DNA from: Zanthoxylum bungeanum
Lineage: Eukaryota; Streptophyta; Magnoliopsida; Sapindales; Rutaceae
Assembly (NCBI GenBank): GCA_019454045.1
Contig: SKCR01001848.1
Span: 1-64,000, forward strand
DNA length: 64,000 bases
Reading direction: 5' to 3'
The notes under the pieces were generated by a model. It searched no databases. It had not been told where the DNA came from and worked only from the letters and a program-made list of their open reading frames with translations. A program made the translations under genes and the position numbers. Below, in pieces: positions 8,810 to 59,440 of this stretch. Positions within the stretch are counted from its first letter, which is position 1, and each line of letters opens with the position of its first letter.

Positions 8810-8917
8810 TGAAGCACAGCGCGCCGCGACGCCCAGCGTGAGCCGGATTTGCTAACATGCGCCTGGTCAACGGTCAACAATTTGATAAGTTTTGACTTTG
8901 CTAAAATGCGCCGTGCC

Positions 8918-9329: not shown

Positions 9330-9337
9330 CGACAAAT

Positions 9338-9355
9338 TGCGCGTCGCGACGCGCA
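9338..9355. repeat. 18-bp perfect palindrome in LTR
   Basis: TGCGCGTCGCGACGCGCA is fully self-complementary. It lies 50-70 bases upstream of the TATA box, followed by a second palindrome at 9364-9375. It could be a protein-binding dyad or a dense CG methylation target. Confidence 0.8.
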
Positions 9356-9407
9356 GATCCTTGGCGTCGCGACGCGGGAACAGTGCCCGAACAGTGAAAA
9401 ATTTTGC

Positions 9408-9416
9408 TATAAATAG
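9408..9416 (+). promoter_or_regulatory. TATA box, 5' LTR
   Basis: TATAAATAG lies downstream of the ACGT array and upstream of a CT-rich tract. Transcription of the element would start near 9440. The 3' LTR copy is at 15829-15837. Confidence 0.75.
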
Positions 9417-10766: not shown

Positions 10767-10784
10767 TGGCGCCGTTGCCGGGGA
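10767..10784 (+). other. Primer-binding site, tRNA-Asp
   Basis: TGGCGCCGTTGCCGGGGA is complementary to the 3' end of plant tRNA-Asp(GUC). It starts five bases after the LTR end. This primer is the usual one for Athila elements. Confidence 0.9.
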
Positions 10785-10897
10785 CTTATATTTCTTGAGT
10801 TGTTAATTTTGAAGCTATCTAATTTACTTATATCTAATTTTCTTTATTTTTATCTGTAATTTTTTATTTCTTTCTTTTGATTTCAGGTGACTTAAAA

Positions 10898-12067
10898 ATG
10901 GAACATTACTGGGAGATTGAAAGATTACGTGCTTTACAAGAAAATACACCCCACATCTGGGAGCAACAGTCCGGTTTTCTGAGGCCTGTTGTCGAGCCCA
11001 ATGATTATCACTGGATGCCAGAACCAAACAATACTACATTTGCTCAACAGAACTCAATGTGGAGATGTGATATATGTAATGGTGACCACCCAAGCGATTA
11101 TTGCGAATACAACTACCATCCAGGGTGGCAGAACTATCAAGATCCTACATGGTACGAAGAACCAACACATTTCACAGAACCACATTTTCCATCTTATCCA
11201 CCATCTTCCTTCGATCCTTATCAACAACCAGAACCATCAGAGGAAGATCAATTGATTCACATGTTCAAAGAACGAGCAACTCGATTTGATGCACAAGTTC
11301 AGAGTAACACAGAATCCATACAGAGAATGACAGATCAGATCAGACAATTCACAGAAAACCAGAACTACATACCTCAAGAACCAGTTCCAGATGACACTGA
11401 TGAAGCCTTCGAATACCAATCATTTCACAATGACACTTCAACAGAGGAGGAGGCTGAGCAGTATCAACAACCAGATGTATCAGTTCAGGAACTTGAACCG
11501 GCAAAGTCTCGATTTGATTTTTATTTTTCAGATTCTGACGATGATGAAGCTGAAATATTTGTACCAACTGCATCAAAAGTTGAGGATGGAATTCTGTATC
11601 CTCAAATGAAGATCTTGGAGAATATTTTGCACAAATGTTTGGAAGAAGATCAACTTGAGCCAATCAATTCACCCGAATCAGAGGATGAAGACCTAATGTC
11701 TGACTCATCTTTTCATCCTCAGGTGGAACAAGAAGCAGAGCAAATGGAGGAGCAAATGTCTGAACTTAATAAAGATCCAGAGCATTCAGGAAAAACATCG
11801 CTGTTTTGGGGAGTACAAATCAAAGATATCACCCAGAAGCTTGACAGAATGGAATTTCCATTCCAAGTCAAGCACCATACGAGACCTCCTAATTTTCTTT
11901 CTTTCTTTGCAGGAACCACTGGAACAACAATGAGCAAAAAGGTGGTACGAGCACTGAATGAGACAAAATATTTTTTGCCACTTTACCGTTGGAAGAGACC
12001 TTTCAAAAGCAACGCTCACGGGATTGTCTTTAATCGGACATCCAAAACGACATTGAAACCTCCTTGA
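10898..12067 (+). CDS. Truncated Athila gag-like protein (389 aa)
   Basis: This is the only long ORF of the non-autonomous element. The first ATG is at 10898, just after a TTTCAG/GT acceptor-like site, the same arrangement as before gag at 49556. Near residue 50 is CDICNGDHPSDYC, a Cys-x2-Cys-x3-His-x4-Cys knuckle as in Athila gag, followed by NYHPGWQNY. The latter corresponds to TYNPGWRNHPNFAW in the larger Athila gag (about 50560-50610). A helical, probably coiled-coil stretch follows (QSNTESIQRMTDQIRQF), then a long Glu/Asp/Ser-rich acidic region and a basic tail. The capsid domain and all pol domains are absent. The ORF has no stop, unlike the frames of the larger relative, which suggests recent descent or a role. 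Its function is unknown; binding element RNA is a guess from the knuckle. Confidence 0.75.
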   Translation: MEHYWEIERLRALQENTPHIWEQQSGFLRPVVEPNDYHWMPEPNNTTFAQQNSMWRCDICNGDHPSDYCEYNYHPGWQNYQDPTWYEEPTHFTEPHFPSYPPSSFDPYQQPEPSEEDQLIHMFKERATRFDAQVQSNTESIQRMTDQIRQFTENQNYIPQEPVPDDTDEAFEYQSFHNDTSTEEEAEQYQQPDVSVQELEPAKSRFDFYFSDSDDDEAEIFVPTASKVEDGILYPQMKILENILHKCLEEDQLEPINSPESEDEDLMSDSSFHPQVEQEAEQMEEQMSELNKDPEHSGKTSLFWGVQIKDITQKLDRMEFPFQVKHHTRPPNFLSFFAGTTGTTMSKKVVRALNETKYFLPLYRWKRPFKSNAHGIVFNRTSKTTLKPP

Positions 12068-12106
12068 TAAATAGATTTCAGTCACGTCTGGCTGAAGACG
12101 AAAAAT

Positions 12107-12140
12107 TTAGCGCTAGCAGGGAGGCAACCCATGCAATTTG
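12107..12140 (+). other. Conserved Athila post-pol block (left border of cargo slot)
   Basis: TTTAGCGCTAGC, then GAGGCAACCCATGCAATTTG. The larger Athila element has TTAGCGCTAGCTGAGAGG with AACCCATGCAATTTG at 54876-54909, directly after pol. Similar text follows pol in known Athila/Calypso elements. In both copies here, element-specific sequence begins shortly afterwards. Confidence 0.7.
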
Positions 12141-12377
12141 TTGTAATTTATTTTTCATATTTTGTGTGAACTTTTTAATTTTTTTGTGTTAGTTTTGCAG
12201 GAAAAATTAAAAACGGAATTTTTCAGGACAAAAGTGGCCAGTACAAGCGGGATTTTCAAAATAAAAATTTGACAAAATCACGAAGATACAAAGTCAATCC
12301 AGAAGAGACGGCCGAGTAAGGAGTCACCTCTTGAGAGGCATCCCTATGGATTTATCCGTCGCAAGACATGATTTTGC

Positions 12378-12378
<1 letters not shown>

Positions 12379-12411
<33 letters not shown>
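12379..12411 (+). repeat. 33-base A homopolymer
   Basis: An uninterrupted run of 33 A, directly followed by TTC and a GCGTCGCGACGC palindrome. A second run of exactly 33 A lies at 14210-14242. Either could be a captured poly(A) tail or simple slippage. The length may be approximate in the assembly. Confidence 0.9.
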
Positions 12412-12413
<2 letters not shown>

Positions 12414-13690
12414 CAGCGTCGCGACGCTGACTCAAAAACAGAACATAAGCAGAGGCACCACAGATCTCATTTTTACTTCTTCTTCTTCCTCAAACACCTC
12501 CAACAGCCGCAACCTTCACCAGCTTTCACCGAGACTGCAACCATCTCGCCAGAACCACCACCACCTCCAACCGTGAGCAAGCCAAACCGTCCATCACCAT
12601 TCTCTCTTAACTCACAACCACGCACAACCCCCATCGTGAACCCCCATTACTGACCATCACCATCGAGACAAACCGAGATCCACCACCGTGAGACCGCCAA
12701 AATCCACGACCGAAACCGCAACAACTCACCGAGAACAAACAAAACCAAGACCCACCAGTCACCATCAAACCGAGATCCAAACTGACTACAACCGCAACAA
12801 GAACAAACCAAAACCGAGCCGTGTCAAACCACCATCAATGAAAGATCTACCGCCGAGTTCACCCACTGCAGAGCCACCATCGCCGAGATCCACACCGTGA
12901 GCAACCACTGCGAGCCATCAAACACTTCCTTCGCCGAGCCTAAACCGAGCCTCAACAACCAAGACACCACTTCGTCGAGACCGAAACTAACGAAGCAAAC
13001 CAGAGCCGTGACTCAACCGCGAGTCACCAAGCCACCATCATCAACCACACAAGCCATCACCACACCAAGCCGAGCCCACTGCCGTGTCTTGCCGTGACTG
13101 CCAAAGCCGACCTCCGCAAGCCGAGATACTCCAAAACCGACCCATCACCCTCACTACCGAGAGAGTCCACCACCGAGAGTCACCAGAAGCCAACCTACTG
13201 CCGTCCAACAACCAAAGACCAGAAATCCAAGCCCAAACCAACATAGCCGAAAGAACCCACCACTGCCAAAATCAGAATTTGAAAGTAACGGTAATAATTT
13301 GATAAATTTGATTTGGTAATTGGTAAATTAATTTGGTAATTAGGTTTGAATTGTGGTGTGTTTGATTTGGGAATTTTGGATTACGAAGTGTTGGATGGTT
13401 GAATTTGATTCGCAGTAATTGGGGGCGAAGAAATTGAGTTTGATATTTGGAGTTTGTTTGTGGCATTTGATAGATTTAGGTTGTGTTGGATAATCAAGAA
13501 TTCAGGGGAGACTCTGTCGAATTTTTCTGAAAAATACCAAAGTTGGGATTTGATTGGTGATAATTTTTTAGGGTGAATTTTGGGGAAATTTTGAGATTTT
13601 AGAAGTGATTCTGCCAAAATTTTTAATGAAAAATGGTCAAATAGCAATTGTGGTAAGAACCGTAATTTGGGCATAAATCTTAATCGGTAA
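12412..13690. other. Cargo slot of the non-autonomous element: C/A-rich block then G/T-rich block
   Basis: From about 12,480 to 13,290 the plus strand is rich in C and A and poor in G and T, with many CCACC, ACCGAG and CAACC words. From about 13,290 to 13,650 it switches to G/T-rich text with GATTTGG and GAATTTTGG words. Several frames of 60-80 codons are open in the first block, but they are low-complexity Pro/Thr/Ser/Arg-rich, overlap in different frames and match nothing I recognise. The look resembles a plant 5' UTR or first exon followed by an intron, so a captured gene fragment is possible. I do not call a gene. Confidence 0.5.
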
Positions 13691-13750
13691 TTTTTCCTGT
13701 AAAATTTCAGCTGATCAGGTATTACCTTCTAACTCTTCTTTTACTGTTTA

Positions 13751-13790
13751 AGACATTGGGGACAATGTCTCATTTAGGTTTGGGGGAGGG
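13751..13790 (+). other. Conserved hairpin plus internal polypurine-tract-like sequence
   Basis: AGACATTG (13751-13758) and CAATGTCT (13763-13770) pair around GGGA. AGGTTTGGGGGAGGG follows at 13776-13790. The larger Athila element has AGATATT / AATATCT and the same purine tract at 56514-56554. It may be a second plus-strand primer site, as in some retroelements. Confidence 0.6.
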
Positions 13791-14206
13791 AATTAGTTGA
13801 TTAATACCTCCTTGTTTTTAGTTGTATGTTGTTTTTATTTTTAGTCCAAATTTTTCGAAAAATACAAAAAAATTGAAAATTTTTCAAAAATTACAAAAAT
13901 ATTTTGCATTTTTTGTGTTTTTTATTTTGACTAAAAAGGTGGAATTGGTGAGAGGTAGCCGAGTAAGGAATTTCCGCTCCTGAGACGTATCTCAAACCTA
14001 TTTCAAAACAAGTTAATTTTTGTTTATTTCCTTTTGAATTATTTAATTTGTGAATTCTCCTTAAACTGACTAAAATGAATCTTCTTATGTTCAGTTGACA
14101 GGTATTATGAACTTACATGGAAACATACGGACATGAGCTAAATTGAAAAGTTTGTAATATTCCGTGCTATAGTTTAATTGGAGGAAGCATCTCTAAATAG
14201 TGATGG

Positions 14207-14209
<3 letters not shown>

Positions 14210-14242
<33 letters not shown>
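14210..14242 (+). repeat. 33-base A homopolymer
   Basis: An uninterrupted run of 33 A immediately before the tandem duplication at 14244. The larger Athila element has a shorter, broken A-rich stretch at the corresponding place (about 56948-56970). Confidence 0.9.
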
Positions 14243-14243
<1 letters not shown>

Positions 14244-14244
<1 letters not shown>

Positions 14245-14488
14245 GAGATCCGAGTTATTAAGTCTGTAAGGGTTTTTTAATACCTAGTGCCCTAAAACCA
14301 ACTGGTTGGGAGTCATTGGCCCAAAGCTCGTTACATGGATCGAAGATGCTGCAAAAATATATATATCTGAAGTCTGAGTAATTAAGTTCGTAGGGGTGTC
14401 TTAACACCTGGTGCCCTAAAGCCAACTGGTTTGGGAGCCACCGACCCAAAGCTCGCTACATAGACGGAAGGTATTGTATAAAAATAAA
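14244..14488 (+). repeat. Tandem duplication of a ~124-bp unit in the 3' non-coding region
   Basis: Units start at 14244 and 14368. Both contain GTGCCCTAAA, CCAACTGGTT and CCCAAAGCTCG. The larger Athila element has a single copy (about 56973-57090), so the duplication is specific to this element. The copies have diverged moderately, so the event predates the last insertion. Confidence 0.75.
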
Positions 14489-14918
14489 AAATAGAGAAAA
14501 AATCAAAGAAAAAATCAGAAAAATCAGAAAATTATTCCATTACTACAAAAAGGTGTGAAATCTGATAGAACTTTAGGACAAAAATATTACTATCTTATCA
14601 ACTGCACTTATGACTGTTGTGGGCAAAAATGAGTTGATTAATATTTTGTTAGCTGTGTATGTGGAGAATGGCAAAAATAATCGGAGAATTTACTTATTCG
14701 GTAATTTAGAAAGAAACAAAACAACTAATAACTTGGATTAGAATTTTCACCTGATTAGTCACTAACTTTCTTTATTCTCTTTTCGCTTGTCTTTTTGCTT
14801 TTGTGTGCATTAGTTTTAAATACCTTTTTACTTTTGTAAAATGTTTGTGGGTATCATTGCTGTAAACCCTCACGAGACTACACTCGTCCACTAGGGACAC
14901 CTAGGGGTTTAAAGGCTT

Positions 14919-14939
14919 GTTGCATATGCTAAATGCAAC
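14919..14939 (+). other. Conserved hairpin near 3' polypurine tract
   Basis: GTTGCAT (14919-14925) and ATGCAAC (14933-14939) pair around a 7-base loop. The same stem is conserved at 57472-57492 in the other Athila element, with the loop differing by one base. It lies in a conserved segment (CACTAGGGACACCTA..GTGATCCCTACGAAA) about 100 bases before the 3' LTR. Confidence 0.55.
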
Positions 14940-15015
14940 CGTGATCCCTACGAAAATGGCTTAGTTAAATTTTGTTATGTTATTTTTGTATTTTGCTCGA
15001 GGACTAGCAAAATGT

Positions 15016-15029
15016 TAGGTTTGGGGGTG
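15016..15029 (+). other. Polypurine tract of the non-autonomous Athila element
   Basis: AGGTTTGGGGGTG ends directly against the 3' LTR start TGATGAG. The identical tract precedes the LTR at 57600. It primes plus-strand DNA synthesis. Confidence 0.8.
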
Positions 15030-17161
15030 TGATGAGTGATATTTATATCACTATTTCCCACTCATTTAACTTAATATTTTGTATAGTTTCTTGAGTTTTG
15101 TGAATGTTTTGATGTGTTTTATTGTTATTTTGCAGATAAATAAAGTTTGGATAGCACTGGAGGCAATTTGGGGCAAAACCGGACAAAAATGCGTCAACAG
15201 GGTTATTTTCGTCTTCTGCGCGTCGCGACGCTGAAGCACAGCGCGCCGCGACGCCCAGCGTGAGCCGGATTTGCTAACATGCGCCTGGTCAACGGTCAAC
15301 AATTTGATAAGTTTTGACTTTGCTAAAATGCGCCGTGCCACGTGTCACCATCACAGCCGATCTGCTAACATGCGCCGTGCCACGTGTCATCATCATATGC
15401 TGCCGACACTCAGACTTGACACGTGTCGCCTCGTCATCAGCCATGTCAGCGGTCAACGAGTCAACCTTGCCACGTGTCATGCCACATCATCGTCCACGTC
15501 AGCAGGTCAACCGAGTCAACATGCCACGTCAGCCTCAGCCAATCACAACTTGACACGTGTCGCCACGTGTCGCAATCCTATTGTGCCGACAAATGCAACA
15601 CACGCCTACGCCACGTCATCGCCACGTCAGCGCCACGTCATCGCCACGTCATCAATGACGTCATCACAATAATTGAGAATTAGCCGCCTTGACACGTGTC
15701 GCATGTACAGTCAGCCGCCTTGCTACGTGTCGCCGTATCATTGTGCCACGTCGACAAATTGCGCGTCGCGACGCGCAGATCCTTGGCGTCGCGACGCGGG
15801 AACAGTGCCCGAACAGTGAAAAATTTGCTATAAATAGAGGGCGAATTTTCAGTTTTAAAAAACACTCCTCTCTCTCTTGATTTCTCTCTCTAGAGAGAGT
15901 TTCTCTCTCTAGATTTTTAGTTTTTTTTATTTTTAGTTTGTAATTTATTTTAATTACGTTTTGTAATAATAGTAATTTAATTTTTACTTTTTACAGTTTT
16001 TACTATTCACCATGTTGAAATAATTTCCCCAGCTAGGGTGAAAGGTAATTCTTCTACTATTGCTATTTAGATTAATCTCCCTTAAAAATAATATATTAAC
16101 TATTTAAAATATTGACTTAAAGGAATACCGCTATATTGGTCGGTTGGTAATTTAATTTTAATCTGGTTTAAACCTGACTAATCAGGATACCGCCAGACTG
16201 GTCGGTTGGTAAATTTATTTTTGGTTCCGCCTTAATGGCTGGTTGGACTTAATTTGACTTAATCAGGATACCGCCAGAATGGTCGGTTGGTAATATTCTC
16301 ACAAGTTTATATATTATTTTACGGGAGATATCTAAATTAGTAGTAGTAAAAGTAATTCCTTTTGTAATTTATTTTTCAGCTTTTTACTTTATGTCTTTTA
16401 CTTTTATGTTTTTACTAGTCCTAGTTATGTGTTAGTTTTCTGAGGTTGTGATGATTTTTAATATCACCGGTTTATAAGGGGTTAAATTATAATTGGGTAA
16501 TATAAAGATTTATTTATTGAGTCTTAATCTTAATGCTTTTTTAATAACTGGCCATTAATAAAATTGATATGGTAAATCTAAAATGAACTAGACATAGGGA
16601 TTTTAGGTTTCAGCCTTAGACTTAATACCCACGATCTTCCTTGAGGATAGATAACCCTTTAATAGATTTCCTTACAGGATAGGAATATACCTGTCGGGCG
16701 GGGGGGTAGCCATAATTGGAACTTAAACTTAATGAATCCAGATAATTTGGTTGACATAGACATATGGTTCAATTGGGTTAAACTGGGTATTTGTGTCTGA
16801 CCATCGACAGAGGCTTACACATAATTTAGTGTTCCAGGTTAATAAATCAATATATTACCAACTTTAAGATAACCACTTCATCTTTAAAATAATATTAAAA
16901 GAAATCACAACCTTAAATCTTTGTGTCTTTGTTATTTTCCTTAATATTTTCTTTTGTCTTTTATTTATTTATTTATTTTGTAAAACCATTTTCAACCAAT
17001 CAAGCAATCAATTCCATTCTCCCCTTTAATTAGATATTTGTAAATAAATAGATTCAACAATTAATAACAACAGTAGGAATTAAGTCCTCGTGGGATCGAT
17101 ATTTTTATACTACTTGAACGATACGTGCGCTTGTGTTATACGTGTGTGTTTACGCCGGTCA
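15030..17161 (+). repeat. 3' LTR of the non-autonomous Athila element
   Basis: It matches 8608-10761 almost base for base, including the ACGT array, palindromes and TATA box (15829-15837). It is 22 bases shorter, mainly through a ~20-base deletion near 16360. It ends CCGGTCA and is followed by the target duplicate GTGTC. Confidence 0.93.
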
Positions 17162-47466: not shown

Positions 47467-49423
47467 TGATAAATAGATCACTATTTCCCACTCATTTTAC
47501 TTAATATTTTGTATAGTTTCTTGCTTTTTGTGAATATTTTGATGTGTTTTGTGTTATTTTGTAGATAAATAAAGTTTCAGGACTCTCTGGAATCAAATCA
47601 GGGCCAAAACAGTGAAAAATGGACAAAAAGGGCAAAATTGTAACTTACACGTCGCGACGCGCAGCTCTGCATCACAACCGCTAACGTGCGTCGGATCATG
47701 CTAACGTGCACCAGACATGTGTCACCATCACATACTGCAGACAATCATCATCATCGCTAACGTGCGCCTGCCACATGTCAACATCACACAGCAAATCATG
47801 CGAACATGCGTCATGCCACGTGTCACCATCACATACTGCCGACAATCGACATCGCCATATCATTGCCACATCAGCACATAATTCAGTTAATCATTCAGCC
47901 CTGCCACGTGTCATAATCTCCGCAAAATTCATTCCACGTGGCACAAATCAAAGGCGCATCGCGACGCGCAAAGTTATGCGCGTCACGACGCGAAAGGACC
48001 ATGGACGCTTATAAATTCAACTCGATTTCAGAATTCAATTCATACTTTCTTCTATGTAATTCCTAAGAATACTAAGAAGATTGTATCTTGTTTGTTTATT
48101 TACAGCTTTCAGTAATTAATTTTTGCATTTGCACTTTCTTTTCTTTACTTTTCAGTCTTTACTTTCTGCAATTTACTGTTACACAATAGTACTTTCCTTT
48201 CCTTACTTTTCAGTCTTTATTTTTCAGTAATGAGGAGGTAACTCCCCCTTGCTGGGGTAAAAGGTAAATCTTTTATTACTAATATTTAGATTAATCTCCT
48301 TTAATTATAATATAAAACTATTTAAAACATGACTTAATGAGGATACCGCCTTATGGTCGGTTGGACTTAATGAAATTGGTTTTAAAACCTGACTAAACTG
48401 GATATCGCCTTATGGTCGGTTGGAATTAATTATAAATTTGACTTAATCAGGTTACCGCTTATATGCTGGTTGGTAATATCACGCAAAGTTATATATTATA
48501 ATAAGGGAGATATCTAAAAAAAGTAGTAATAAAAGTGGATCCTCTAACCCCAATATTTTCTTTTATTGTACTTTTACATTTTTAATTTTCAGCATTTACT
48601 TTTCAGATTTACTTTTTCAGCATTTACTTTTTAGCATTTACTTTCCAGCATTTACTTTATGTCTTTTATTTTATTTAAGTTTTTCTTACCTTAGATATGT
48701 GTCGTAACTAAGTCCATTATCTGGGGTTGTGATGAATTCTAATATCACCGGTTTATAAGGGGTTATTTTACAGTTTGGGTAATATAAAGTTTTATTTATT
48801 GAGTCTTAAGCTTAATGCTTCTTGTTAACTGGCCATTATAAGATTGATTTGGTAAACTTAAAATGAACTTGGAAAAGGATTTTAGGTTTAAACCCTAGAC
48901 TCAATAGCCCACGATCTTCCTTGAGGATAGACAACCCTTTAATAGATTTCCTTATAGGATATGAATAAACCTGTCGGGTGGGGGTAGCCATAATTGGAAC
49001 TTAATCTTAATTAATTCAGGTAACTTGGTTGGCATAGGAATATGATTAATTAAGTTACACTGAGTATTTGTATTTGACCGTCGGAATAGACTTTTGCATA
49101 ATTTCGTGTTCCAGGTTAATAAACCGATATATTACACAAACGTAAAATAACAACTTCATCTTTAAAAAGATATTGGAAGGATTCACAACCCTGGATAGTT
49201 TCTTAATATTGAATTTCACTTAATTTACTTTCGAGCCATTTGTTTTACTTGTTTTAATTTAAAGTCACCATTCCAATCAAAAAATCAATCCATTAGATAC
49301 TTGTAAAAATTTGGCTTCATAAATTAATAGCTTAGGTATTAAGTCATCATGGGATCGATACTTTTTATACTACTTGAATGATACGTGCGCTTGCGTTATA
49401 CGCGTGTGATTACGCACCGGTCA
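47467..49423 (+). repeat. 5' LTR of large Athila element
   Basis: It shares ACTATTTCCCACTCATTT, AATATTTTGTATAGTTTC, the ATACCGCC..GGTCGGTTGG repeats and the end TACTACTTGAATGATA..CCGGTCA with the LTR at 8608. TATAAAT lies at 48010-48016. It has fewer ACGT cores and mostly mutated CGTCGCGACG palindromes upstream. Confidence 0.85.
48010..48016 (+). promoter_or_regulatory. TATA box, large Athila 5' LTR
   Basis: TATAAAT lies just after a GGACCATGGACGC context. The copy in the other LTR is at 58093-58099. Confidence 0.6.
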
Positions 49424-49429: not shown

Positions 49430-49447
49430 TGGCGCCGTTGCCGGGGA
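49430..49447 (+). other. Primer-binding site, tRNA-Asp
   Basis: TGGCGCCGTTGCCGGGGA, identical to the site at 10767-10784. It starts seven bases after the LTR end. Confidence 0.9.
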
Positions 49448-49555: not shown

Positions 49556-51000
49556 ATGAGACAAACCAGAAGCTTTGAAATCCGTCCGCGAGACCCATAA
49601 ATTGAAAGAACCATCAGACAGTTGAGAAGGGAAATGCGAGAAGGCCAAGAAGCAATCATCAACATGGAACCTGAACCTTTGGAAGTTGTACCACCAATTC
49701 CCATTTGACACAGAATTATTCTGATGGTTGACGGCTTTATTTCCTGTATTGTATTTCCTCCTCTTACCAGCAAATACGTGTGACATCAAAAAGCATCCAG
49801 ATGATACAGCAGTCAGTTCAGTTTGGGGGGAATGCAACTGAAGATCCTAATGCCCACATCAGCAACTTCCTGAAAGTTTGCGGCACTTTCAATTACAACC
49901 GAGCAGTTGAAGAAGCAATGAGACTATGTGTTTTCCCATACACCTTGAAAGACAGAGCTAAAGCTTGGCTACATTCACTACCAGCAGATTCCATCACAAC
50001 TTGGAACACTCTAGTCACAAAATTCCTTGCAAAGTACTTTCCATTAGCCAGAACTGCAAAGATGAGGAATGACATTACATCTTTTGTACAACATGACTAA
50101 GAATCCCTCTGCGAAGCTTGGGAAAGGTATAAATATTTACTCAGAAAATGTCCTCACCATGAGATTGCAAAGTGGCTACAAGTCCAAACATTCTATAATG
50201 GACTTTCTGGAATAATGAGAACCACAATTGATGCTGCCGCTGAAGGAGCTTTAATGGCAAAATGAGAAGATCAAGATTGGGACCTAATTGAAGAAATGGC
50301 CAACAACAATTCTTTGTGGCCAATAGAAAGGAGCATGATCCAAAGAATTGCAGGAATTTTTGAAGTTGGAGCCAACACAGCAGTGTATGCTAAGCTAGAT
50401 CAGATTTTAAAAAATCTGGAAACTCTTAACATGAAGGTTAATGCTGGATCCACAAGTTCACCATATGGAGGAGCACCAGAATCAGAGGTAAACCAACATG
50501 AAGAAACATTGAATTATGTCAACAATTTCAACAGACATAGGAACAATCCATACTCCAACACCTACAACCCAGGGTGGAGAAATCATCCCAATTTCGCATG
50601 GAACAACAATTCAGGCAAAGGAAAAATCCACCACCAGGATTTCAACAACAAAACAAAGGCCATGAATGTGAAAAAAAACCAGGTTTAACATAAGTGTTGG
50701 CCCAATTGAAAAAACAAGAAGCAAAATATGATGTTTTAGCAGCTATGGTTCAAAATCAAGTAGCATTGAATCAAATCCATTCAGCTTCTATTAAAGCACT
50801 GGAGAATCAAATAGGACAACTGGCCAATGTTCAAAGTTACAAACCGCCAGGTAACCTTCCTAGCAACACAGAACCAAATCCAAGGAACCGTGGGAAGGAG
50901 CAATGTCAAGCCATTACCTTGAAAATCAGTACTGAAATCAACAAAGATGTTGGAATCAAGACATCGATTGAAGAAGCTCCAAAAGATGCAGTTCCATAGA
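49556..51000 (+). pseudogene. Athila gag pseudogene
   Basis: It opens MRQTRSFEIRP just after a TTTTCTTGTGTTTCAG/GT acceptor-like site. Capsid (Retrotrans_gag) text is clear: DPNAHISNFLKVCGTF, RLCVFPYTLKDRAKAWLHSL, ITTWNTLVTKFLAKYFP (49840-50050), then CEAWERYKYLLRKCPHHEI and IEEMANNNSLWP. The C-terminal part has NTYNPGWRNHPNFAWNN and a coiled-coil-like KALENQIGQLANVQ. At least five in-frame stops break it (for example near 49598, 49707, 50098 and 50263). Gag would form the particle. Families match by motif, not by search. Confidence 0.88.
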
Positions 51001-51214
51001 TGGAGGAAAAAAAAGCAAAGGAAACAGATCAAGAAAGAATCACTTTACCTCTACCTTTTCCACAGCGTCTCCAGAAAAACAAACTGGACAAGCAGTTTGC
51101 TCGATTCTTGAAGGTGTTCAAAAAGCTGTATATCAACATCTCATTTGCAGAAGCGTCAGAAGAAATGCCCAGCTAAATCAAATTCATGAAATACATTCTT
51201 CACGAAAATGGAGA

Positions 51215-51640
51215 TTGGGAGACTACGAGACAGTAGCATTGACAGAAGAATGCAGCGCCATCATTCAGAGGATACTTCCCCCAAAGTTGAAAGATCATGG
51301 CAGTTTCACTGTTCCTTGCACCATTGGAGAACATTGCATCGGTAAAGCTTTATGTGATTTAGGTGCAAGTGTTAATTTGATGCCTTTTTCGATTTACAGG
51401 AAACTGAAAATTGGAGAAACAATGCCCACCTCAATCTCTCTGTAACTTGCTGATAAAACACTCGCATTTCCGAAAGGTGTAGTTGAAGATGTACTGGTCA
51501 AAGTTGACAAACTCATTCTCCCAGCAGATTTCATTATCCTTGACATGGAAGAAGACAAAGATGTACCTATCATCCTCGGGAGACCATTTTTTGCTACAGG
51601 TCAAACTGTTATTGATGTATAAAAATGTGAATTAACCATG
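51215..51640 (+). pseudogene. Athila protease remnant
   Basis: Aspartic protease: the active-site Asp is in CDLGASVNLMP (about 51355-51385), where DLGAS replaces the usual D-S/T-G-A. The C-terminal hydrophobic motif is PIILGRPFFATG (about 51566-51600). A stop at 51443 splits the domain and another follows at 51620. The protease would cleave the Gag-Pol polyprotein. Confidence 0.75.
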
Positions 51641-52129
51641 AAAGTGCAGGACCAAGAAGTTACCTTCAATGTTTTCAAAGCTATGAAATTCTCGAGTGAT
51701 GAAAAGGAGGAGGAATGTTTCAAAATTGATGTTGTAGATAGTATCATCCAGGATACTGATGTAATTTCCACGGATAAACTTGAAGCTTGCATCACCAACA
51801 TGACTGACAGCGAGTTAGATGAAGAAATTCTGGAATGTTTCAACTACCTTGACAAACTATGTCGTTTTAAATCGACACCACAGGTGGAAAGTTGGAACTA
51901 CCAAAGAATGAGGGAATCAAGCCTTAGATTGAAGAACCATCGCAGCTGGAGCTAAAGCTACTTCCGAGCCATCTCAGGTATGCATTCTTAGGAAACTCTT
52001 CTGAATTACCTGTGATCATTTCTTCGTCACTAACATTGGAGCAGGAAGAAAAAATGCTGAGAACACAAGAAAGCCATTGGTTGGACTATAGCAGACATTC
52101 GAGGCATTATTCCATCATTTTTCATGCAC

Positions 52130-53605
52130 AAAGTTCTGATGAACGATGAGTACAAACCCACAGTGGAGAATCAACGAATACTAAATCCAATCATGAAGGA
52201 GGTCGTGAAGAAAGAAATCATCAAATCGTTGGATGCTGGTATCATTTACCCCATCTCTGACAGCACTTGGTGAGTCCTATGCAGTGTGTGCCAAAGAAAG
52301 GAGGAATAACTGTAGTCACAAATGAAAAGAACGAGCTGATTCCAACAAGAACAATGACTGGATGAAGAGTATGCATGGACTACAAGAAGCTGAATAAAGC
52401 AACAAGGAAATATCATTTTCCGCTGCCATTCATTGACCAGATGCTAGACAGATTGGCGGGACATGAATTCTATTGCTTTCTGGATGGATACTCGAGGTAC
52501 AATCAGATTTCCATTGCCCCCAAAAGATCAGGAGAGAACCACTTTTACATGTCCATATGGTACTTTTGCTTTCTGTAGGATGCCATTTAGACTATGTAAT
52601 GCTCCTGCCACATTTCAACGCTGCATGATGGCCATCTTCTCAGACATGCTGAAATAAAGTATGGAGGTTTTCATGGATGATTTTTCTGTGTTTGGAGATT
52701 TTTTCGACCACTGCTTACAAAATCTGGAACATGTGCTACAAATATGTGAAGATACCAACCTCGTAATCAACTGGGAGAAATGCCACTTCATGGTGCAGGA
52801 AGGCATCGTCCTGGGACATCAGATCACACAAAAGGGAATCGAGGTAGACAAAGCAAAGATCGAAATAATTGAAAAACTACCTCCACCAACATCTGTCAAA
52901 GGAATTCAAAGTTTTCTCAGACATGCTGGATTTTACAAGAGATTTATCAAAGACATCTCAAAGATTGCTAAACCTCTATACAATCTTCTGGAGAAAGATG
53001 TGCCTTTCAACTTCACCAAAGAATGCCATGAAGCTTTTGAGATCTTGAAACAGAAGTTGATATCTACTCCCATCATAGTAGCATCGGATTGGACTCTTCC
53101 ATTTGAAGTGATATACGATGCTAGTGATTTTGCTGCAGGTGCAGTTTTGAGACAACGCAAAGAAAAAAATTTTCCATACCATTTACTACTCCAGCAGAAC
53201 TCTGAATGAAGCTCAACTCAACTATACAACCACTGAAAAGAAGTTGCTTGCAGTTGTGTTCACTTTTGATAAATTCCGCTTCTACCTGCTGGGTCCCAAA
53301 GTGGTGGTTTACACAGATCATTCAGCAATCAAATATCTGATCCCGAAGAAATATGCCAAACCCAGATTGATCTGTTGGATACTTCTACTGCAAGAATTCG
53401 ATGTGGAGATCAGAGACAGGAAATGGACAGAAAATCAAGTGGTAGATCATTTATCGAGGCTCGAGAATGGAGAAACAGCTGGCAAAGAACTAACAATCAA
53501 AGAAACTTTTCCAGATGAACAGTTATTTTCCATGAAACAACATGATGCCCCTTGGTATGTTGACTATGTCAACTACATAGTATCGGGAAAATGGCAGTTA
53601 GAATG
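52130..53605 (+). pseudogene. Athila reverse transcriptase / RNase H pseudogene
   Basis: RT text: RVCMDYKKLNKATRKYHFPL (52369 on), IDQMLDRLAGHEFYCFLDGY, a frameshift near 52530, then FAFCRMPFRLCNAPATFQRC, a stop at 52658, and VFMDDFSVFG with both catalytic Asp kept. The thumb follows (LGHQITQKGIEVDKAKIE, LRHAGFYKRFIKDISKIAKP). RNase H shows LPFEVIYDASDFAAGAVL and, after a frameshift near 53185, [30 protein letters not shown] and a [10 protein letters not shown] end. Domain order and motifs are Ty3/gypsy, Athila type. Confidence 0.88.
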
Positions 53606-53639
53606 AACAACTCAGCAATGGAAGAAGTTCTTCAAAGAA

Positions 53640-54828
53640 ATCAAGCATTATGCATGGGATGAGCCATACCTGTTCAAACGTTATGTTGATCAATTACTGA
53701 GACGGTGTGTTCCATAGGAGGAGGTCAATAGTGTCCGGCATCATTGTCATTCATCACCATATGGCGGACACTTCAGCGGGAATAAAACTACAGCGAAAGT
53801 CCTACAGTCAGGTTTATTCTAGCCCACTCTTTTTAAAGATGCTTACTTATTTGCTCTTCAATGTGACAGGTGCCAGAGAACGGGAAATATATCGAGGAGA
53901 AATGAAGGACCTCTGTAAAATATTCTGGAAGTGGAGATATTTGATGTATGAGGTATTGATTTTATGGGACCCTTTGTTCCATCGTTCGAAAACCAGTACA
54001 TACTGGTTGCAGTAGACTATGTCTCCAAATGGGTTGAAGCAATTGCACTACCATCAAATGATTCAAAAGTGGTGATTAAATTCCGTAAAAATAATATTTT
54101 TACTCGCTTCGGAACACCTTGGGCGATTATTAGTGATGGAGGCACACATTTCTGCAACAAATACTTTGACGCACTCTTATCCAAATATGGAGTTACTCAT
54201 AAAGTTTCCATTGCCTACCATCCACAGTCAAACAGACAGGTTAAATTTTCAAATAGGAAGATAAAAAGAATCTTGGAGAGAACCGTTAGATCAACAACGA
54301 ATGACTGGTCTGAAAAACTGGATGACACATTATGGGCCTACCGGACAGCTTACAAGACACCCATTGGTATGTCCCCATATCGAATGGTGTTTGGGAAAGC
54401 ATGCCATCTACCAGTCGAGCTTGAACACAAGGTGTACTGGGCACTGAAGAAGTTAAATCTTGATCTACAAGTTGCAGGAGAGAAACGACTCCACCAACTC
54501 AACGAATTGGAGGAATTTTGCGTACAGGCTTATGAGAATGCCAAACTATACAAAGAAAATACCAAGAAATGGCATGATAAAAAATAGTGCGCGCAGACAA
54601 CTAGAGCCGGAGCAGCAAATGTTATTATACGATTCACGGTTGAAACTCTTCCCTGGAAAGCTGAAGTCAAAGTGGTCATGTCCATTTGTGATTAGTAAGG
54701 TGTTACCATACGGAGTTGTTGAGATATACAACCCTAATTCGAACAATACATTCAAAGTTAACAGCCAGCATGTCAAGCATTACTGGGGAGAATCAATTGA
54801 GCGACAAAAAAAAGTGTCGCACTTTTAG
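53640..54828 (+). pseudogene. Athila integrase pseudogene
   Basis: The N-terminal HHCC zinc finger is scrambled by stops and frameshifts (53700-53920). The core is readable in one 207-aa frame (53964-54587): [10 protein letters not shown] (first Asp), [14 protein letters not shown] (second Asp), then [14 protein letters not shown] where relatives have a Glu after QV, so the third catalytic residue appears to be Lys. [17 protein letters not shown] and [13 protein letters not shown] are Athila hallmarks. A frameshift near 54580 leads to the C-terminal part (FPGKLKSKWSCPFVI.. HVKHYWGE), ending at 54828. No chromodomain, as expected for Athila. Confidence 0.87.
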
Positions 54829-54909: not shown

Positions 54910-54961
54910 TGTATATATTGAGATTTGGTGAGTTTTATTTTTGTGTGTTTAATTTGTGTAG

Positions 54962-55444
54962 GTAAAGTCACATTTCAGTATAGAAGAAGCTCTCGCAAAT
55001 CTTCACAAGAAATTTCCTTATCTCCCTCAAAACTCTCTGATGAAAGTCTACAAAGCTCAATTGGAACGGATGAGAGTACTGATGATCAAATGTATTCCTA
55101 ATGACATTCGTTGGATTATTGAAGCATGGTTCTGATTGGCAGATGAGTCTTCTAACTCTTTTGTTACATATCTGCCTGGTTTAGGAAGAAGCACCTATGC
55201 TAAAAAGAGAAGAGCTAAAAGAATGAGTGTTTGCTATAAATGTGCACGCATGACATGTAATACTCGTGGTCGTTCTTTAGTAATGGTGTCTGATAACCAT
55301 GAAGATAAAATTAAATTCATTAGGGATGACTTGAGTAAGGAGTCTTTAGATGACATATCTAAGACTCTTGAGATGCATTCCAGTGGATATGTGCATCATG
55401 CAATTCACATGTTATATACACAATTCCAAAAAGAAAAACAATAG
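54962..55444 (+). pseudogene. Unidentified post-pol ORF of the large Athila element (about 160 codons, one stop)
   Basis: In one frame from the acceptor-like TTTGTGTAG/G the text reads SHFSIEEALANLHKKFPYLP, QNSLMKVYKAQLERM and IKCIPNDIRWIIEAWF. A TGA (55133-55135) follows, then ADESSNSFVTYLPGLG and a lysine/arginine-rich stretch. Next is CYKCARMTC (Cys-x2-Cys-x4-Cys), then DLSKESLDDISKTLEMHSSG up to a TAG at 55442-55444. Readable text (DTACQFIRKLDGKLVPDA) continues past that TAG. I do not recognise the family. It has no transmembrane segment, so it is not a typical Athila env-like protein. It precedes the LOG domain in another frame, with a possible intron between (acceptor at 55628). Confidence 0.5.
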
Positions 55445-55628
55445 TTAAGTCTCATAAATCTGACTCTAAAAGACACTGCTTGCCAATTTATAAGAAAATT
55501 GGATGGGAAGCTTGTCCCTGACGCATAGACGTCATTTAAGCTGTTACTTATTGTAAATATTATTATCTCTTTGTCTTTTCCTAATAATTGTTATTTATTT
55601 TGTCATTTTCTTTTATTTTCTCTGACAG

Positions 55629-56363
55629 GATCCAGACTTTTTGACTTTTCACGATCTATTTTTCTTTTTAGCTAATAATTATCATCTGGCAGATACTAGT
55701 GCTATTATTACTCACCTTTTTTCAGGTGTTATAAATTCAACTCATCATTGCACTCTTGAAGGCAGCCAGATTTTGAGAAAGAAACATAAAAAATTGAAAG
55801 CTACTTCAAGAAGACGAGTTGTAAACATCTGTGTATTTTACGGTACTAGTGTTGGTTCTAAGCCATAATACGTAAAGGCAGAACGTGAATTGGGTCGAGT
55901 CATAGATGAAAGGAATATGCATCTAGTATATGGTGGTGGCAATCTTGGACTAATGGGGATCGTTTCAAGGGTTGTACAGGAAGGAGGCAGTCAAGTCTTA
56001 GGAATCATCCCAAAACCTTTGGCGGGGGCGAATCTTAAAGGACCATCAAATGGAGAGGAACTGATCGTGCCAGGTATGTCTGAACGACTGGTAGAAATGA
56101 ATAATCGTGTTGAAGATTTTATTACTTTTCCAGGTGGCTTGGGCACGATGGAGGAAATTTTTACAGTGCTATCTTGGGCGAACTTGAACATACACCAGAA
56201 ACCGCTTGGACTGTTTAATGCTGATGGATTTTATGATTTTCTTTATGTATTTCTTGATGATGCCCGAAGAAATGGGTTCGTGTCAAAACCTGTAAAAGAA
56301 CTCGTCTTTACTGCCAGAACTGCATCAGATTTAATTGACCAAATCTTAGCCTTTGAACCATAA
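55629..56363 (+). pseudogene. LOG: LOG-family cytokinin riboside 5'-monophosphate phosphoribohydrolase domain, captured, one in-frame stop
   Basis: One frame runs from an acceptor-like TCTCTGACAG/G to the TAA at 56361. An N-terminal stretch of about 60 residues without known similarity (DPDFLTFHDLFFFLANNYHL...) is followed by a LOG Rossmann domain: NICVFYGTSVGSKP (55824 on), ELGRVIDERNMHLVYGGG, NLGLMGIVSRVVQEGG, VLGIIPKPLA, MSERLVEM with the conserved Arg, the signature PGGLGTMEE (56130-56156), and WANLNIHQKPLGLFNADGFY. LOG enzymes release ribose 5-phosphate from cytokinin nucleotides to give active free cytokinins. The only break is TAA at 55866-55868, six codons after the GTS motif. The domain is complete (about 178 aa) and has no introns, whereas plant LOG genes have several, pointing to capture from an mRNA. 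Activity cannot be judged; a shorter product could start inside after the stop. Confidence 0.85.
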
Positions 56364-56513
56364 ATTGATCATATCCATTCCAAGATAATCTGGTCCGATA
56401 ATGATCGTGGTAAAAAGCGTCGGATAAATCTGGATCTTAACTTTTAATTCTTCATTTAGATGTAGAATTTCAGTTAACCAGGTACTGTTTCTAAACTATT
56501 CTTCTACTTTTTA

Positions 56514-56554
56514 AGATATTAGGGACAATATCTCATTTAGGTTTGGGGGAGGGG
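56514..56554 (+). other. Conserved hairpin plus internal polypurine-tract-like sequence
   Basis: AGATATT (56514-56520) pairs with AATATCT (56527-56533). AGGTTTGGGGGAGGGG follows at 56539-56554. In the other Athila element the stem is AGACATTG/CAATGTCT, so a C:G pair there is a T:A pair here and pairing is kept. Confidence 0.6.
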
Positions 56555-57585
56555 AATAGTTGACTAGTATCTTATTTTTATTGCATTATTTTTAGTCAAA
56601 AATTTTCAAAAAATTTACAAAAATTTTAAAAAAAAAAAAGTTTTGTTTTTTGTGGTTTTAACTTGATTAATCAGGTGATATTGGTATGAGATAACTGTGT
56701 AAGGAATTTCCACTCCTGAGATGTATCTCAACCTATTTCGGAACAAGTTAATTTTTGTTTATTTCATTTTGAATAACTTAATTTGTGAATTCTCCATAAA
56801 ACTGACTAAAATGGCTCTTCATATGCTCAGTTGACATGTATTATCAACATACATGGTAACATACGGACATTAGTTATAATTGACGAGTTTGTAATATTCA
56901 GTGCTCTAGTTTAATTGGAGGAAGCATCTAAAAAAGCGATGGGATAGAAAAAATAAAAATAATAAAAACATTTGAGATCTGAGTTATTAAGTACGTAGGG
57001 GTGTCTTAACACCTCGTGCCCTAAAGCCAACTGGTTTGGGAGTCACTCACCCAAAGCTCACTACATGGATGGATGATATTGTATATAAATAAAAAAAATC
57101 AGAAAAAAAATTCCATTGTTAAAAAAGGTTTGAATTTTGATATAACTTCAGGAAAAAAATATTGCTCTCTTTTCAACTACACTTGTGAATATTGTGGGCA
57201 CAATGAGCTGATAACTTATTTGGTGTGTATATGAAGAATGGTAAAAATAATCGGAGAATTTACTTATTCGGTAATTTAGAAAGAAAGAAAACAACTATTA
57301 ACTTGGATAAGAAGTTTCACCTGTTTAGTCACTAACTTGTTTATTCTCTTTTCTCTTGTCTTTTTGATTTTGTGTGCATTAGTTTTAAATTGACGTTTGT
57401 AGGTATCGTTGATGTAAGCCCTCACGAGACTACAACTCGTCCACTAGGGACACCTAAGGGTTTAAAGGCTTGTTGCATACGCTAAATGCAACCGTGATCC
57501 CTACGAAAGTGGCTTAGTTTAATTTTATTTTAAAGATGTTTATGTTATTTTATTTTGTTGCTTCGCTCGAGGACTAGCAAAATGT
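56555..57585 (+). other. Conserved 3' non-coding region of large Athila element
   Basis: It is co-linear with 13791-15015: GGAATTTCCACTCCTGAGA, GGAACAAGTTAATTTTTG, GTGCCCTAAAGCCAACTGG, TCGGAGAATTTACTTATTCG, CTAGGGACACCTAAGGG and hairpin GTTGCAT/ATGCAAC at 57472-57492. No ORF. Its preservation in a non-autonomous relative suggests a cis role in packaging, plus-strand priming or RNA processing. Confidence 0.6.
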
Positions 57586-57599
57586 TAGGTTTGGGGGTG
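57586..57599 (+). other. Polypurine tract of large Athila element
   Basis: TAGGTTTGGGGGTG ends against the LTR start TGATGGGTGG. It is identical in its core to 15016-15029. Confidence 0.8.
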
Positions 57600-59440
57600 T
57601 GATGGGTGGTAAATAGATCACTATTTCTCACTCCTTTTACTTAATATTTTGTATAGTTTCTTGAGTTTTGTGAATATTTTGATGTGTTTTGTGTATTTTT
57701 TAGATAAATAAAGTTTCAGTCTCTGGAATCAAATCAGGGCCAAAATAGTGAAAAATGAAAAATTGTCATTTGCACGTCATGACCGCTAACGTGTGCCGGA
57801 CATGTGTCACTATCACATGCTGCCGACAATCATCGTCATCGCTAATGTGCGCCTACCACGTGTCATTATCACAGCAAATCATGCTAACATACGTCGTGCC
57901 ATGTGCACCATCGCATGCTGCCGACAATCGACATCGTCACGTCATTGCCACATCAGCACAATAATTCAGTTAATCATTCAGCCCTGCCACGTGTAACAAT
58001 CTCCGCAAAAGCCATGCCACATGGCACAAATCAAAGGCGCGTCGTGACGCGTAAAGTGATGCGCGTCACAACGCGAAAGGACCATGGACGCCTATAAATT
58101 CAGCTCGATTTCAGAATTCAATTCATACTTTCTTCTATGTATTCCTTAATAATACTAAGAAAAATGTATCTTGTTTGTTTATTTACAGCTTTCAGTAATT
58201 AATTTTCGCATTTGCACTTTCTTTTCTTTACTTTTCAGTCTTTACTTTCTGCAATTTACTTTTATGCAATAGTACTTTCATTTCCTTACTTTTCAGTCTT
58301 TATTTTTCAGTAATGAGGAGGTAACTCCCCCTTGCTGGGGTAAAAGATAAATATTTTATTACTAATATTTCGATTAATCTCCCTTAATTATAATATATAA
58401 ACTATTTAAAACCTAACTTAATGAGGATACCACCTTATGGTCGGTTGGACTTAATGAAATTGGTTTTAACCTGACTAAACTGGATATTGCCTTATAGTCG
58501 GTTGGAATTAATTATAAATTTGACTTAATCAGGTTACCGCCTATATGGCTGGTTGGTAATATCACGCAAAGTTAATATATTATAATAAGGGAGATATCTA
58601 AAAAAAGTAGTAATAAAAGTGGAACCTCTAACCCCCATCATTTTCTTTTATTGTACTTTTACATTTTTAATTTCCAGCATTACTTTTCAGCATTTACTTT
58701 TTCAGCATTTACTTTTCAGCTTTACTTTTCCGCATTTACTTTCCAGCATTTACTTTATGTCTTTTATTTTATTTAAGCTTTTCTTAACCTTAGATATGTG
58801 TCGTAACTAAGTCCATTATCTGTGGTTGTGATGAATTCTAATATCACCGGTTTATAAGGGGTTATTTTACAGTTTGGGTAATATAAAGATTTATTTGTTG
58901 AGTCTTAAGCTTAATGCTTCTTGTTAACTGGCCATTAATAAGATTGATTTGGTAAACTTAAAATGAACTTGGAAAATGGATTAAACCCTAGACTCAAAAT
59001 CCCACGATCTTCCTTGAGGATAGATAACTCTTTAATAGATTTCCTTACAGAATAAGAATATACCTGTCGGGGGCGGGGGTAGTCATAATTGGAACTTAAT
59101 CTTAATGAATTCAGGTAACTTGGTTGACATAGGAATATGATTAATTAAGTTACACTGAGTATTTATATCTGACTATCGGAAGAGGCTTTTGCATAATTTC
59201 GTGTTCCAGGTTAATAAACCGATATATTACACAAACGTAAAATAACCATTTCATCTTTAAAAAGAAATTGGAAGGATTCATAACCCTGGATAGTTTCTTA
59301 ATATTAAATTTCACTTAATTTAATTTCGAGCCATTTGTTTTACTTGTTTTAATTTAAAGTCACCATTCCAATCAAAAAATCAATTCATTAGATACTTGTA
59401 AAGATTTAGCTTCATAAATTAATAGTTTGGGTATTAAGTC
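57600..59440 (+). repeat. Second LTR of large Athila element, 3' end deleted
   Basis: It is co-linear with 47467-49345, including TATAAAT at 58093-58099. It stops at GTATTAAGTC and joins directly to TTGTGTTTCAGGTTCTCAG, which lies in the leader/gag start of the first unit. The missing interval corresponds to 49346-49529 (184 bases) and removes the LTR end and primer site. The junction shows a 2-base overlap (TC). Confidence 0.85.

What the first reader, a model, noticed from the sequence alone, without database searches (positions are those of the whole stretch)
55629..56363. An Athila retrotransposon carries a nearly intact LOG (cytokinin-activating) domain
Seen: a continuous LOG domain with VYGGGNLGLMG, the conserved Arg in MSERLVEM and PGGLGTMEE lies between integrase and the 3' non-coding region of an Athila element, in sense orientation and without introns. 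There is one stop in about 245 codons, while gag-pol next to it has many. Known: LOG converts cytokinin nucleotides to active cytokinins, and plant LOG genes have several introns. Inference: the element captured LOG from an mRNA and may have spread it. A mobile element that makes a growth hormone activator could favour dividing cells, where new insertions are inherited. I know of no described case, but could not search.
Basis: partly seen in the sequence, partly recalled or inferred. Interest (0 to 1): 0.92.

Follow-up and report, generated by a model that had tools for sequence, protein, structure and literature searches.

The report
Jumping gene carrying altered cytokinin-enzyme gene
A dead plant retrotransposon carries a gene descended from a plant hormone-activating enzyme next to a gene resembling a plant-virus zinc-finger protein; retrotransposons with the enzyme gene were already known, but its protein relatives have mostly lost the proposed hormone-binding pocket and many have a new tail.

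Summary
The LOG domain is real and lies inside a Ty3/gypsy (Athila-like) LTR element (5' LTR from 47467, 3' LTR from 57600). Its proper extent is 55794-56447 (217 codons): start codon lost, two premature stops (55866, 56361), no frameshift. That damage fits neutral decay; this copy is dead.

The carrier is not new: PMC9289625 reports the LOG ("YgdH") domain in Citrus and Populus LTR elements.

Not found in print by my searches: (1) just upstream (54980-55528) lies a gene matching carlavirus-type nucleic-acid-binding proteins (PF05515/PF01623). (2) In a tree, 66 of the 120 listed LOG relatives plus the window form one clade apart from the host-type LOGs sampled. His97/Lys100/Glu125 of the proposed cytokinin prenyl pocket, kept in 120 of 120 host-type LOGs, survive in 20 of 118, 11 of 118 and 10 of 120; some lineages, including Citrus, also lost a catalytic residue. 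(3) 62 of 89 relatives with a reached tail end in LxLxL (EAR-like), against 0 of 120 host-type LOGs.

So the element protein has probably left cytokinin activation. A LOG-less relative (8605-17161) appears to keep a LOG tail remnant.

The host genome could not be searched; no structure was made.

The parts
47467..49423 (+). 5' LTR of the LOG-bearing element (right edge by comparison with the element at 8605-17161; the left edge is uncertain by a few bases)
   Evidence: pairs with 57607-59440, K2P 0.067 over 1810 sites
49430..49447 (+). primer binding site-like stretch shortly after the LTR (assignment to tRNA-Asp type is recalled)
   Evidence: sequence printed
49732..54825 (+). decayed gag-pol: gag, RT, RNase H, integrase, broken by stops and many frame changes
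   Evidence: Retrotrans_gag, RVT_1, RT_RNaseH_2, RT_RNaseH, rve
54980..55528 (+). accessory gene 1: zinc-finger/basic protein like carlavirus-type nucleic-acid-binding proteins (NABP); start codon lost, premature stops at 55133 and 55442, fourth finger cysteine lost in this copy
55714..55725 (+). polypyrimidine-CAG stretch upstream of the LOG gene, a possible 3' splice site (inference, not tested)
   Evidence: sequence; the coding stretch DTSAIITH just upstream also occurs in relative P0012
55794..56447 (+). accessory gene 2: LOG-derived gene, 217 codons; start codon lost, premature stops at 55866 and 56361, ends KKRRINLDLNF
56448..57584 (+). 3' non-coding region; 56461-57716 is shared at about 80% with the LOG-less element (13698-15148)
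57585..57599 (+). polypurine-tract-like stretch abutting the 3' LTR
   Evidence: sequence; identical in the LOG-less element
57600..59438 (+). 3' LTR; it runs directly into internal leader sequence of another copy (59439-59651), so its end is missing
8605..17161 (+). related element (LTRs 8605-10761 and 15027-17161, 98.0% identical) in which no pol and no LOG gene was seen
13631..13690 (+). probable remnant of a LOG tail (19 codons plus stop) in the LOG-less element, at the syntenic place
   Evidence: E 0.0087 with a tail profile; not significant with the whole-gene profile (E 2.4)

Best explanation
The window holds a dead copy of an Athila-like Ty3/gypsy element. Its lineage carries two accessory genes between integrase and the 3' LTR: a carlavirus-NABP-like zinc-finger gene and a gene descended from a plant LOG enzyme.

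The LOG gene was taken up once, most simply from a spliced host mRNA, and then inherited with the element. Shown on protein sequences: the relatives placed in the tree form one clade apart from the sampled host-type LOGs; within it Glu125 and Lys100, and later in several branches His97, of the proposed prenyl pocket were replaced. Some lineages also lost catalytic Arg99 or Glu122. Fold motifs were kept in most rows, and a C-terminal basic + LxLxL tail in many.

Inferred: the protein is kept for something other than cytokinin activation. My first guess is a nuclear, EAR-type contact with TOPLESS-class co-repressors that eases silencing or alters the host cell. Under this view the NABP-like protein next to it serves the same end: of its viral counterparts two are described as RNA-silencing suppressors, and one of these also as a transcription factor.
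For: LOG inside an element. Probable LOG tail remnant in a second element at the syntenic place. Leader next to LOG shared with relative P0012. A 6562-base contig is listed both for a LOG fragment (P0109) and an NABP relative (P0249); that it is one contig is inferred from the length.

One clade: SH-aLRT 95 with 66 of the 120 listed relatives plus the window, and 100/100 with 59 relatives plus the window and the motif, pocket and tail columns left out. Pocket counts: host-type 120 of 120 at each site; relatives His97 20 of 118, Lys100 11 of 118, Glu125 10 of 120; Arg99 107 of 118, Glu122 103 of 120. Ten relatives keep all three pocket residues. Fewest changes on the tree: Glu125 1, Lys100 2, Arg99 3, His97 5, Glu122 5, tail 7. 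Tail LxLxL: 68 of 120 listed, or 62 of 89 whose tail is reached; host-type 0 of 120; all 62 have at least 3 Lys/Arg in the 8 residues before it. Site roles: PMC4979012 passages.

NABP: PF05515 in 17 of 18 and PF01623 in 15 of 18 members of alignment A1 (17 of the 25 relatives and the window piece). Controls: 0 of 3 full shuffles matched either family; of 3 shuffles that kept the finger motif, 1 matched both, below the cut-offs. Viral NABP roles: PMC12172455 passages. EAR consensus: PMC9956375, start of abstract in a search listing.
Against: No relative's DNA or genome context could be read, so the element location of most of the 120 rows rests on the window, one shared leader, copy numbers and PMC9289625. 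Both catalytic residues are kept in 91 of 118 rows, so activity on some nucleotide is possible. PMC11593424 (passages) reports plant LOGs that share the conserved critical residues yet differ in activity, so residues alone do not fix activity; the prenyl site itself is only proposed in PMC4979012, from superposition. Host-type LOGs sampled are the best 120 of 7996 hits to a LOG3 fragment plus a LOG8 fragment; PMC11593424 divides angiosperm LOGs into four groups, so the pocket or tail changes could in part belong to an unsampled host group. The early branches (P0036 and the Xanthoceras rows) keep the whole pocket and lack LxLxL. The tail needs 7 changes on the tree, so it is not uniformly kept; in the window it is LDLNF, not LxLxL. 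LxLxL is short. No dN/dS, expression or structure was obtained.
Confidence: 0.6

Rival explanations
1. The element protein is still a cytokinin-activating LOG that favours dividing cells; the changed pocket residues tolerate or retune the substrate.
For: Both catalytic residues kept in 91 of 118 rows. Phosphate-binding PGGxGT and YGGG motifs kept in most rows. Ten rows, among them the earliest-branching ones, keep all three pocket residues. Activity does not follow conserved residues alone in plant LOGs (PMC11593424 passages). The neighbouring gene resembles viral proteins of which one (CVB p12) causes hyperplasia.
Against: His97, Lys100 and Glu125 are changed in 98 of 118, 107 of 118 and 110 of 120 rows, while 120 of 120 host-type LOGs keep them. 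Citrus rows lost Glu122 and the P0012 group Arg99.
Confidence: 0.15
2. The protein is an enzyme or sensor for another nucleotide: AMP-type binding is kept, base recognition changed. It may act on a nucleotide signal of plant immunity or silencing.
For: AMP-phosphate motif and catalytic pair mostly kept while the base/prenyl side changed. All 28 members of alignment A2 also match the SLOG cluster4 family.
Against: Groups that lost Arg99 or Glu122 persist. Sampled host-type LOGs match the same SLOG family in the precomputed column, so that match is not specific. No substrate is known.
Confidence: 0.2
3. The LOG is passenger cargo under no selection, copied along with the element.
For: The window copy is decayed to the degree expected of neutral sequence. 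A pol-less relative has at most a tail remnant of the gene.
Against: Of the 27 relatives aligned to P0004, 24 are 45-67% identical to it, and most of them still span the gene with conserved motifs (rows chosen by me), which neutral cargo would hardly keep. This is a protein-level argument, without dN/dS, and the protein search favours open frames.
Confidence: 0.15
4. The clade is an unsampled host LOG subfamily or processed genes, and the window shows an isolated insertion of such a gene into an element.
For: Host sampling was narrow. Automatic names call some Populus rows LOGL10.
Against: LTR-element consensuses of Citrus and Populus carry the domain (PMC9289625). Probable tail remnant in a second element of the window. 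Shared element leader in P0012. Hundreds of member sequences in one Citrus cluster.
Confidence: 0.1

Closest known systems
Athila-like elements with LOGL4-like extra ORFs (Steinbauerova et al. 2011, Genetica 139:1543; paper not held, abstract recalled) and YgdH-bearing LTR consensuses of Citrus and Populus (PMC9289625, domain-screen section read)
   Same: LOG domain carried by a plant Ty3/gypsy element as an extra ORF
   Different: the section read mentions neither an NABP-like neighbour, nor pocket loss, nor the LxLxL tail; the host of the window is unknown
Plant LOG enzymes (Arabidopsis LOG3, PDB 2a33; LOG8, 1ydh)
   Same: fold family, YGGG and PGGxGTxxE motifs, length
Carlavirus-type nucleic-acid-binding proteins (Pfam PF05515, PF01623)
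   Same: basic stretch followed by a cysteine finger; for 6 of 7 relatives scanned the PF05515 match spans about 80-90 residues above Pfam's cut-off
   Different: encoded by an LTR element; finger spacing C-x2-C-x4-C-x3-C (the longer viral spacing is recalled)
Phalaenopsis Ty3/gypsy elements with an AlkB-type m6A demethylase (PMC9289625)
   Same: host-type enzyme domain as an extra gene in a plant gypsy element
   Different: other domain; there enzyme activity was shown in vitro (abstract)

Membership tests
Ty3/gypsy LTR retrotransposon | two LTRs around gag, RT, RNase H and integrase in this order | tested here: met
Athila lineage | phylogenetic place of the RT, or lineage-specific domains | tested here: inconclusive
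   no reference RT set was at hand; no ATHILA family was among the Pfam matches of the ten pieces scanned (eight of them from this element's gag-pol); PBS/PPT look (recalled) and a 3' extra ORF fit Athila
Cytokinin-activating LOG enzymes | PF03641 domain with PGGxGTxxE and catalytic Arg99/Glu122 (CgLOG numbering) | tested here: met
   window copy has both, but the copy is not translatable as a whole
Cytokinin-activating LOG enzymes | proposed prenyl-group site Met96, His97, Lys100, Glu125, Trp129 | tested here: not met
   window: Met, Ser, Leu, Thr, Trp
Cytokinin-activating LOG enzymes | release of free cytokinin from its nucleotide | not testable with these tools
   needs protein
EAR-motif proteins | LxLxL or DLNx(x)P motif | tested here: inconclusive
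   62 of 89 relatives with a reached tail end in LxLxL; the window tail is LDLNF
EAR-motif proteins | binding of TOPLESS-type co-repressors | not testable with these tools
   needs a binding assay
Carlavirus-type NABP | match to PF05515/PF01623 above cut-off | tested here: met
   window piece: PF01623 28.2 vs 20.9 met, PF05515 22 vs 23 just missed; of 7 relatives scanned, 7 passed for PF01623 and 6 for PF05515
Carlavirus-type NABP | descent shared with the viral proteins shown by tree or fold | not tested
   no structure could be made (10 busy replies and 1 not accepted); no viral sequences were fetched

The most novel reading that the evidence does not exclude
A plant retrotransposon lineage took up a hormone-activating enzyme, dismantled its hormone pocket, and fitted it with a nuclear, TOPLESS-binding (EAR) tail. 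It carries this next to a virus-type silencing-suppressor/transcription-factor gene, the pair forming an accessory kit against host silencing.
Probability: 0.2. Interest if true: 0.85.

Novelty: new variant of a known kind. Interest (0 to 1): 0.6.

Why it matters
If right, it is a traceable case of an enzyme taken by a selfish element and rebuilt for another task, with intermediates (pocket kept, pocket lost, catalytic residue lost) still present in sequence data. It would also tie a plant RNA-virus protein family to a retrotransposon gene. Why plant gypsy elements keep extra genes is an open question, and here it becomes directly testable with small proteins.

Tried and rejected
Viral and prokaryote collections gave no related locus: LOG, NABP and integrase in viral contigs; P0004 in genome contigs. 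The solved-structure search with the NABP alignment gave only a chance-level match (Cullin-5, E 0.099). A weak match of the NABP to 12237-12356 (30%, E 0.26) was not confirmed by the profile. Target-site duplication could not be tested, because the 3' LTR runs into another copy's leader. Dropped before the trees: rows shorter than 170 (relatives) or 190 (host-type) residues and near-identical rows, leaving 66 relatives of 103 and 29 host-type rows of 116, and 59 and 26, where the long-branched P0121 was also left out. In the conservation comparison the 107 'derived' rows were chosen by Lys100 being changed or gapped out of the kept state, so its Lys100 figure is by construction. In the drawing the WINDOW row bears a 'host' text label by a script slip; its group was set correctly. 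The profile of alignment A1 contains the window's own NABP piece, so that piece's score is not independent; the upstream piece was not in it. I also placed the loss of Glu125 before that of Lys100; only P0092 keeps Lys100 without Glu125, so that order is not settled.

Full report
WHAT IS THERE. The stretch 55794-56447 is a LOG-family gene (Pfam PF03641 E 2.8e-32; nearest solved structure Arabidopsis LOG3, E 1e-41). It lies in sense orientation between an integrase domain (53964-54584) and an LTR at 57600. That LTR pairs with 47467-49345 at 89.6% identity; K2P over 1810 sites is 0.067. gag, RT and RNase H domains lie in between. Sequence just after integrase (54848-54966) and after LOG (56461-57716) recurs in a second element at 8605-17161, so the LOG gene is inside an element and not merely beside one.

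STATE OF THE COPY. Relatives P0002-P0004 are 217 residues long. Its true last residues are KKRRINLDLNF. There is no frameshift. Simulated neutral decay at half the LTR divergence gives 0.62 stops on average and two or more in about 13% of 20000 runs. Elsewhere in the element, stretches of 211 and 183 codons are open, though gag-pol as a whole changes frame many times. So nothing shows that this copy was preserved.

A SECOND ACCESSORY GENE. Between integrase and LOG, 54980-55528 encodes a basic cysteine-finger protein. This copy has lost the start codon and the fourth finger cysteine and has two premature stops. The window piece passes Pfam's cut-off for Carla_C4 (28.2 vs 20.9) and just misses that for Viral_NABP (22 vs 23). 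The protein search found 25 relatives. Of the 18 members of alignment A1 (17 of these relatives and the window piece), 17 match Viral_NABP and 15 match Carla_C4 at E up to 0.01, best 1.1e-8. Controls: 0 of 3 full shuffles matched either family; of 3 shuffles that kept the finger motif, 2 matched nothing and 1 matched both below the cut-offs. The similarity therefore goes beyond composition and mostly beyond the motif. The upstream piece of this gene, which was not in the alignment, scores E 2.7e-21 against its profile. Passages of PMC12172455 describe two carlavirus-type cysteine-rich proteins (SPCFV NaBP, CVB p12) as RNA-silencing suppressors, and CVB p12 also as a transcription factor that induces hyperplasia. 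Whether virus gave the gene to the element, the reverse, or both took it from elsewhere is open.

RELATIVES OF THE LOG. The search with the window LOG returned 346 proteins, of which the best 120 are listed. They include many short environmental contigs and named rows from Citrus x changshan-huyou, Populus, Xanthoceras and Reevesia; one Citrus cluster stands for 705 member sequences. P0012 starts with element leader that the window also has (DTSAIITH). A LOG fragment (P0109) and an NABP relative (P0249) both list a 6562-base contig; I infer, but could not check, that it is the same contig.

ONE CLADE, ERODED POCKET, NEW TAIL. With 66 relatives (of the 103 that were long enough) and 29 host-type LOGs plus LOG3 and LOG8, the relatives and the window form one clade (SH-aLRT 95). 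With motif, pocket and tail columns left out (59 relatives, 26 host-type rows, LOG3, LOG8) the split has support 100/100 (the bootstrap had not fully settled). PMC4979012 proposes Arg99 and Glu122 as catalytic, and Met96, His97, Lys100, Glu125 and Trp129 as the prenyl-group site, in a bacterial LOG; it says that the site is identical in plant LOGs, and that alanine at the AMP-binding and catalytic residues abolished nearly all activity, S19A excepted (passages). All 120 host-type rows have His97, Arg99, Lys100, Glu122 and Glu125. Among the 120 listed relatives His97 is kept in 20 of 118, Lys100 in 11 of 118, Glu125 in 10 of 120, Arg99 in 107 of 118 and Glu122 in 103 of 120 (the denominators leave out gaps). 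Ten rows keep all three pocket residues, and 91 of 118 keep both catalytic ones. The earliest branches of the tree (P0036 and the Xanthoceras rows P0059, P0065, P0082) keep all five; P0058 has the full pocket and an LxLxL tail; beyond it Glu125 (one change on the tree) and Lys100 (2) are lost, and His97 (5) later in several branches: 10 rows keep His97 without Lys100. The listed Citrus rows have lost Glu122, and the P0012 group Arg99. C-terminally, 68 of 120 relatives (62 of 89 whose tail is reached) end in LxLxL, against 0 of 120 host-type rows; all 62 have at least 3 Lys/Arg in the 8 residues before it. The tail needs 7 changes on the tree, and the window's own tail is LDLNF. LxLxL is one form of the EAR repression motif (PMC9956375, start of abstract in the listing). 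Against a simple reading from residues: PMC11593424 (passages) reports plant LOGs with the same critical residues but different activities.

THE LOG-LESS RELATIVE. In the element at 8605-17161 I saw no pol and no LOG gene. At the syntenic place (13631-13690) it has 19 codons and a stop resembling a LOG tail. With a profile of 81 tails this is the third-best of 2815 six-frame pieces of the window, E 0.0087, after the two pieces of the LOG itself. With the whole-gene profile it is not significant (E 2.4). Position and stop agree, so I read it as a remnant: the common ancestor probably carried LOG. No remnant of the NABP gene was found there.

HOW IT MOST LIKELY WORKS. Shown: carrier, position, decay, clade, pocket loss, tail. 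Inferred: uptake from an mRNA (no introns); expression from spliced RNAs (a polypyrimidine-CAG stretch upstream of LOG and a TTTCAG directly before the NABP frame); selection on the protein in active lineages (of 27 relatives that I chose to align with P0004, 24 are 45-67% identical to it and most still span the gene). Guess: a non-cytokinin role, first a nuclear EAR-type contact with TOPLESS, second another nucleotide.

PRIOR ART. PMC9289625 (its section on the domain screen read) reports YgdH, the LOG domain, in LTR-element consensuses of two Citrus species and, without its filter, Populus trichocarpa, in line with Steinbauerova et al. 2011. That paper is not held; I recall its abstract as naming two Athila-like elements with similarity to LOGL4. 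PMC7264820 and PMC6317226, searched by term, have no LOG or cytokinin passage. My searches for further reports listed no other paper on LOG in a retrotransposon, and those on carlavirus-type proteins in retrotransposons (none found; 15 of 134 listed) listed none on that subject. I judged these listings by title and start of abstract.

LIMITS. The window's genome could not be searched (15 requests unanswered) and no structure was made. Relatives are known as proteins only. The host species and the exact retrotransposon lineage are not established here.

Noticed in passing
8605-17161: Related element with LTRs 98% identical and one 409-codon open frame (10838-12067) without a Pfam match but with a CX2CX4HX4C knuckle-like motif (by eye); it shares LTR and 3' region with the LOG element, and its middle is filled with proline/threonine-rich, seemingly unrelated sequence.
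   Followed up: partly
57600-59651: The 3' LTR lacks its end and runs directly into the internal leader of another copy (59439-59651), suggesting recombination between copies.
   Followed up: partly
55133, 55442: The NABP-like gene is broken in much the same way as the LOG gene (lost start, two stops), as expected if both accessory genes decayed after insertion.
   Followed up: yes
P0100, P0107, P0108, P0110, P0117 (Citrus rows): The PGGxGTxxE motif is replaced by PGDLAT-type sequence in Citrus rows, so they should be catalytically dead LOGs; one cluster (P0117) stands for 705 member sequences.
   Followed up: partly
23687-43594: Further long repeat pairs of other families (for example 33723-35775 vs 41543-43594, 94.7%, and 23687-25586 vs 31422-33265, 91.1%); open frames at 28676-30938 read like copia-type integrase/RT by eye.
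   Followed up: no
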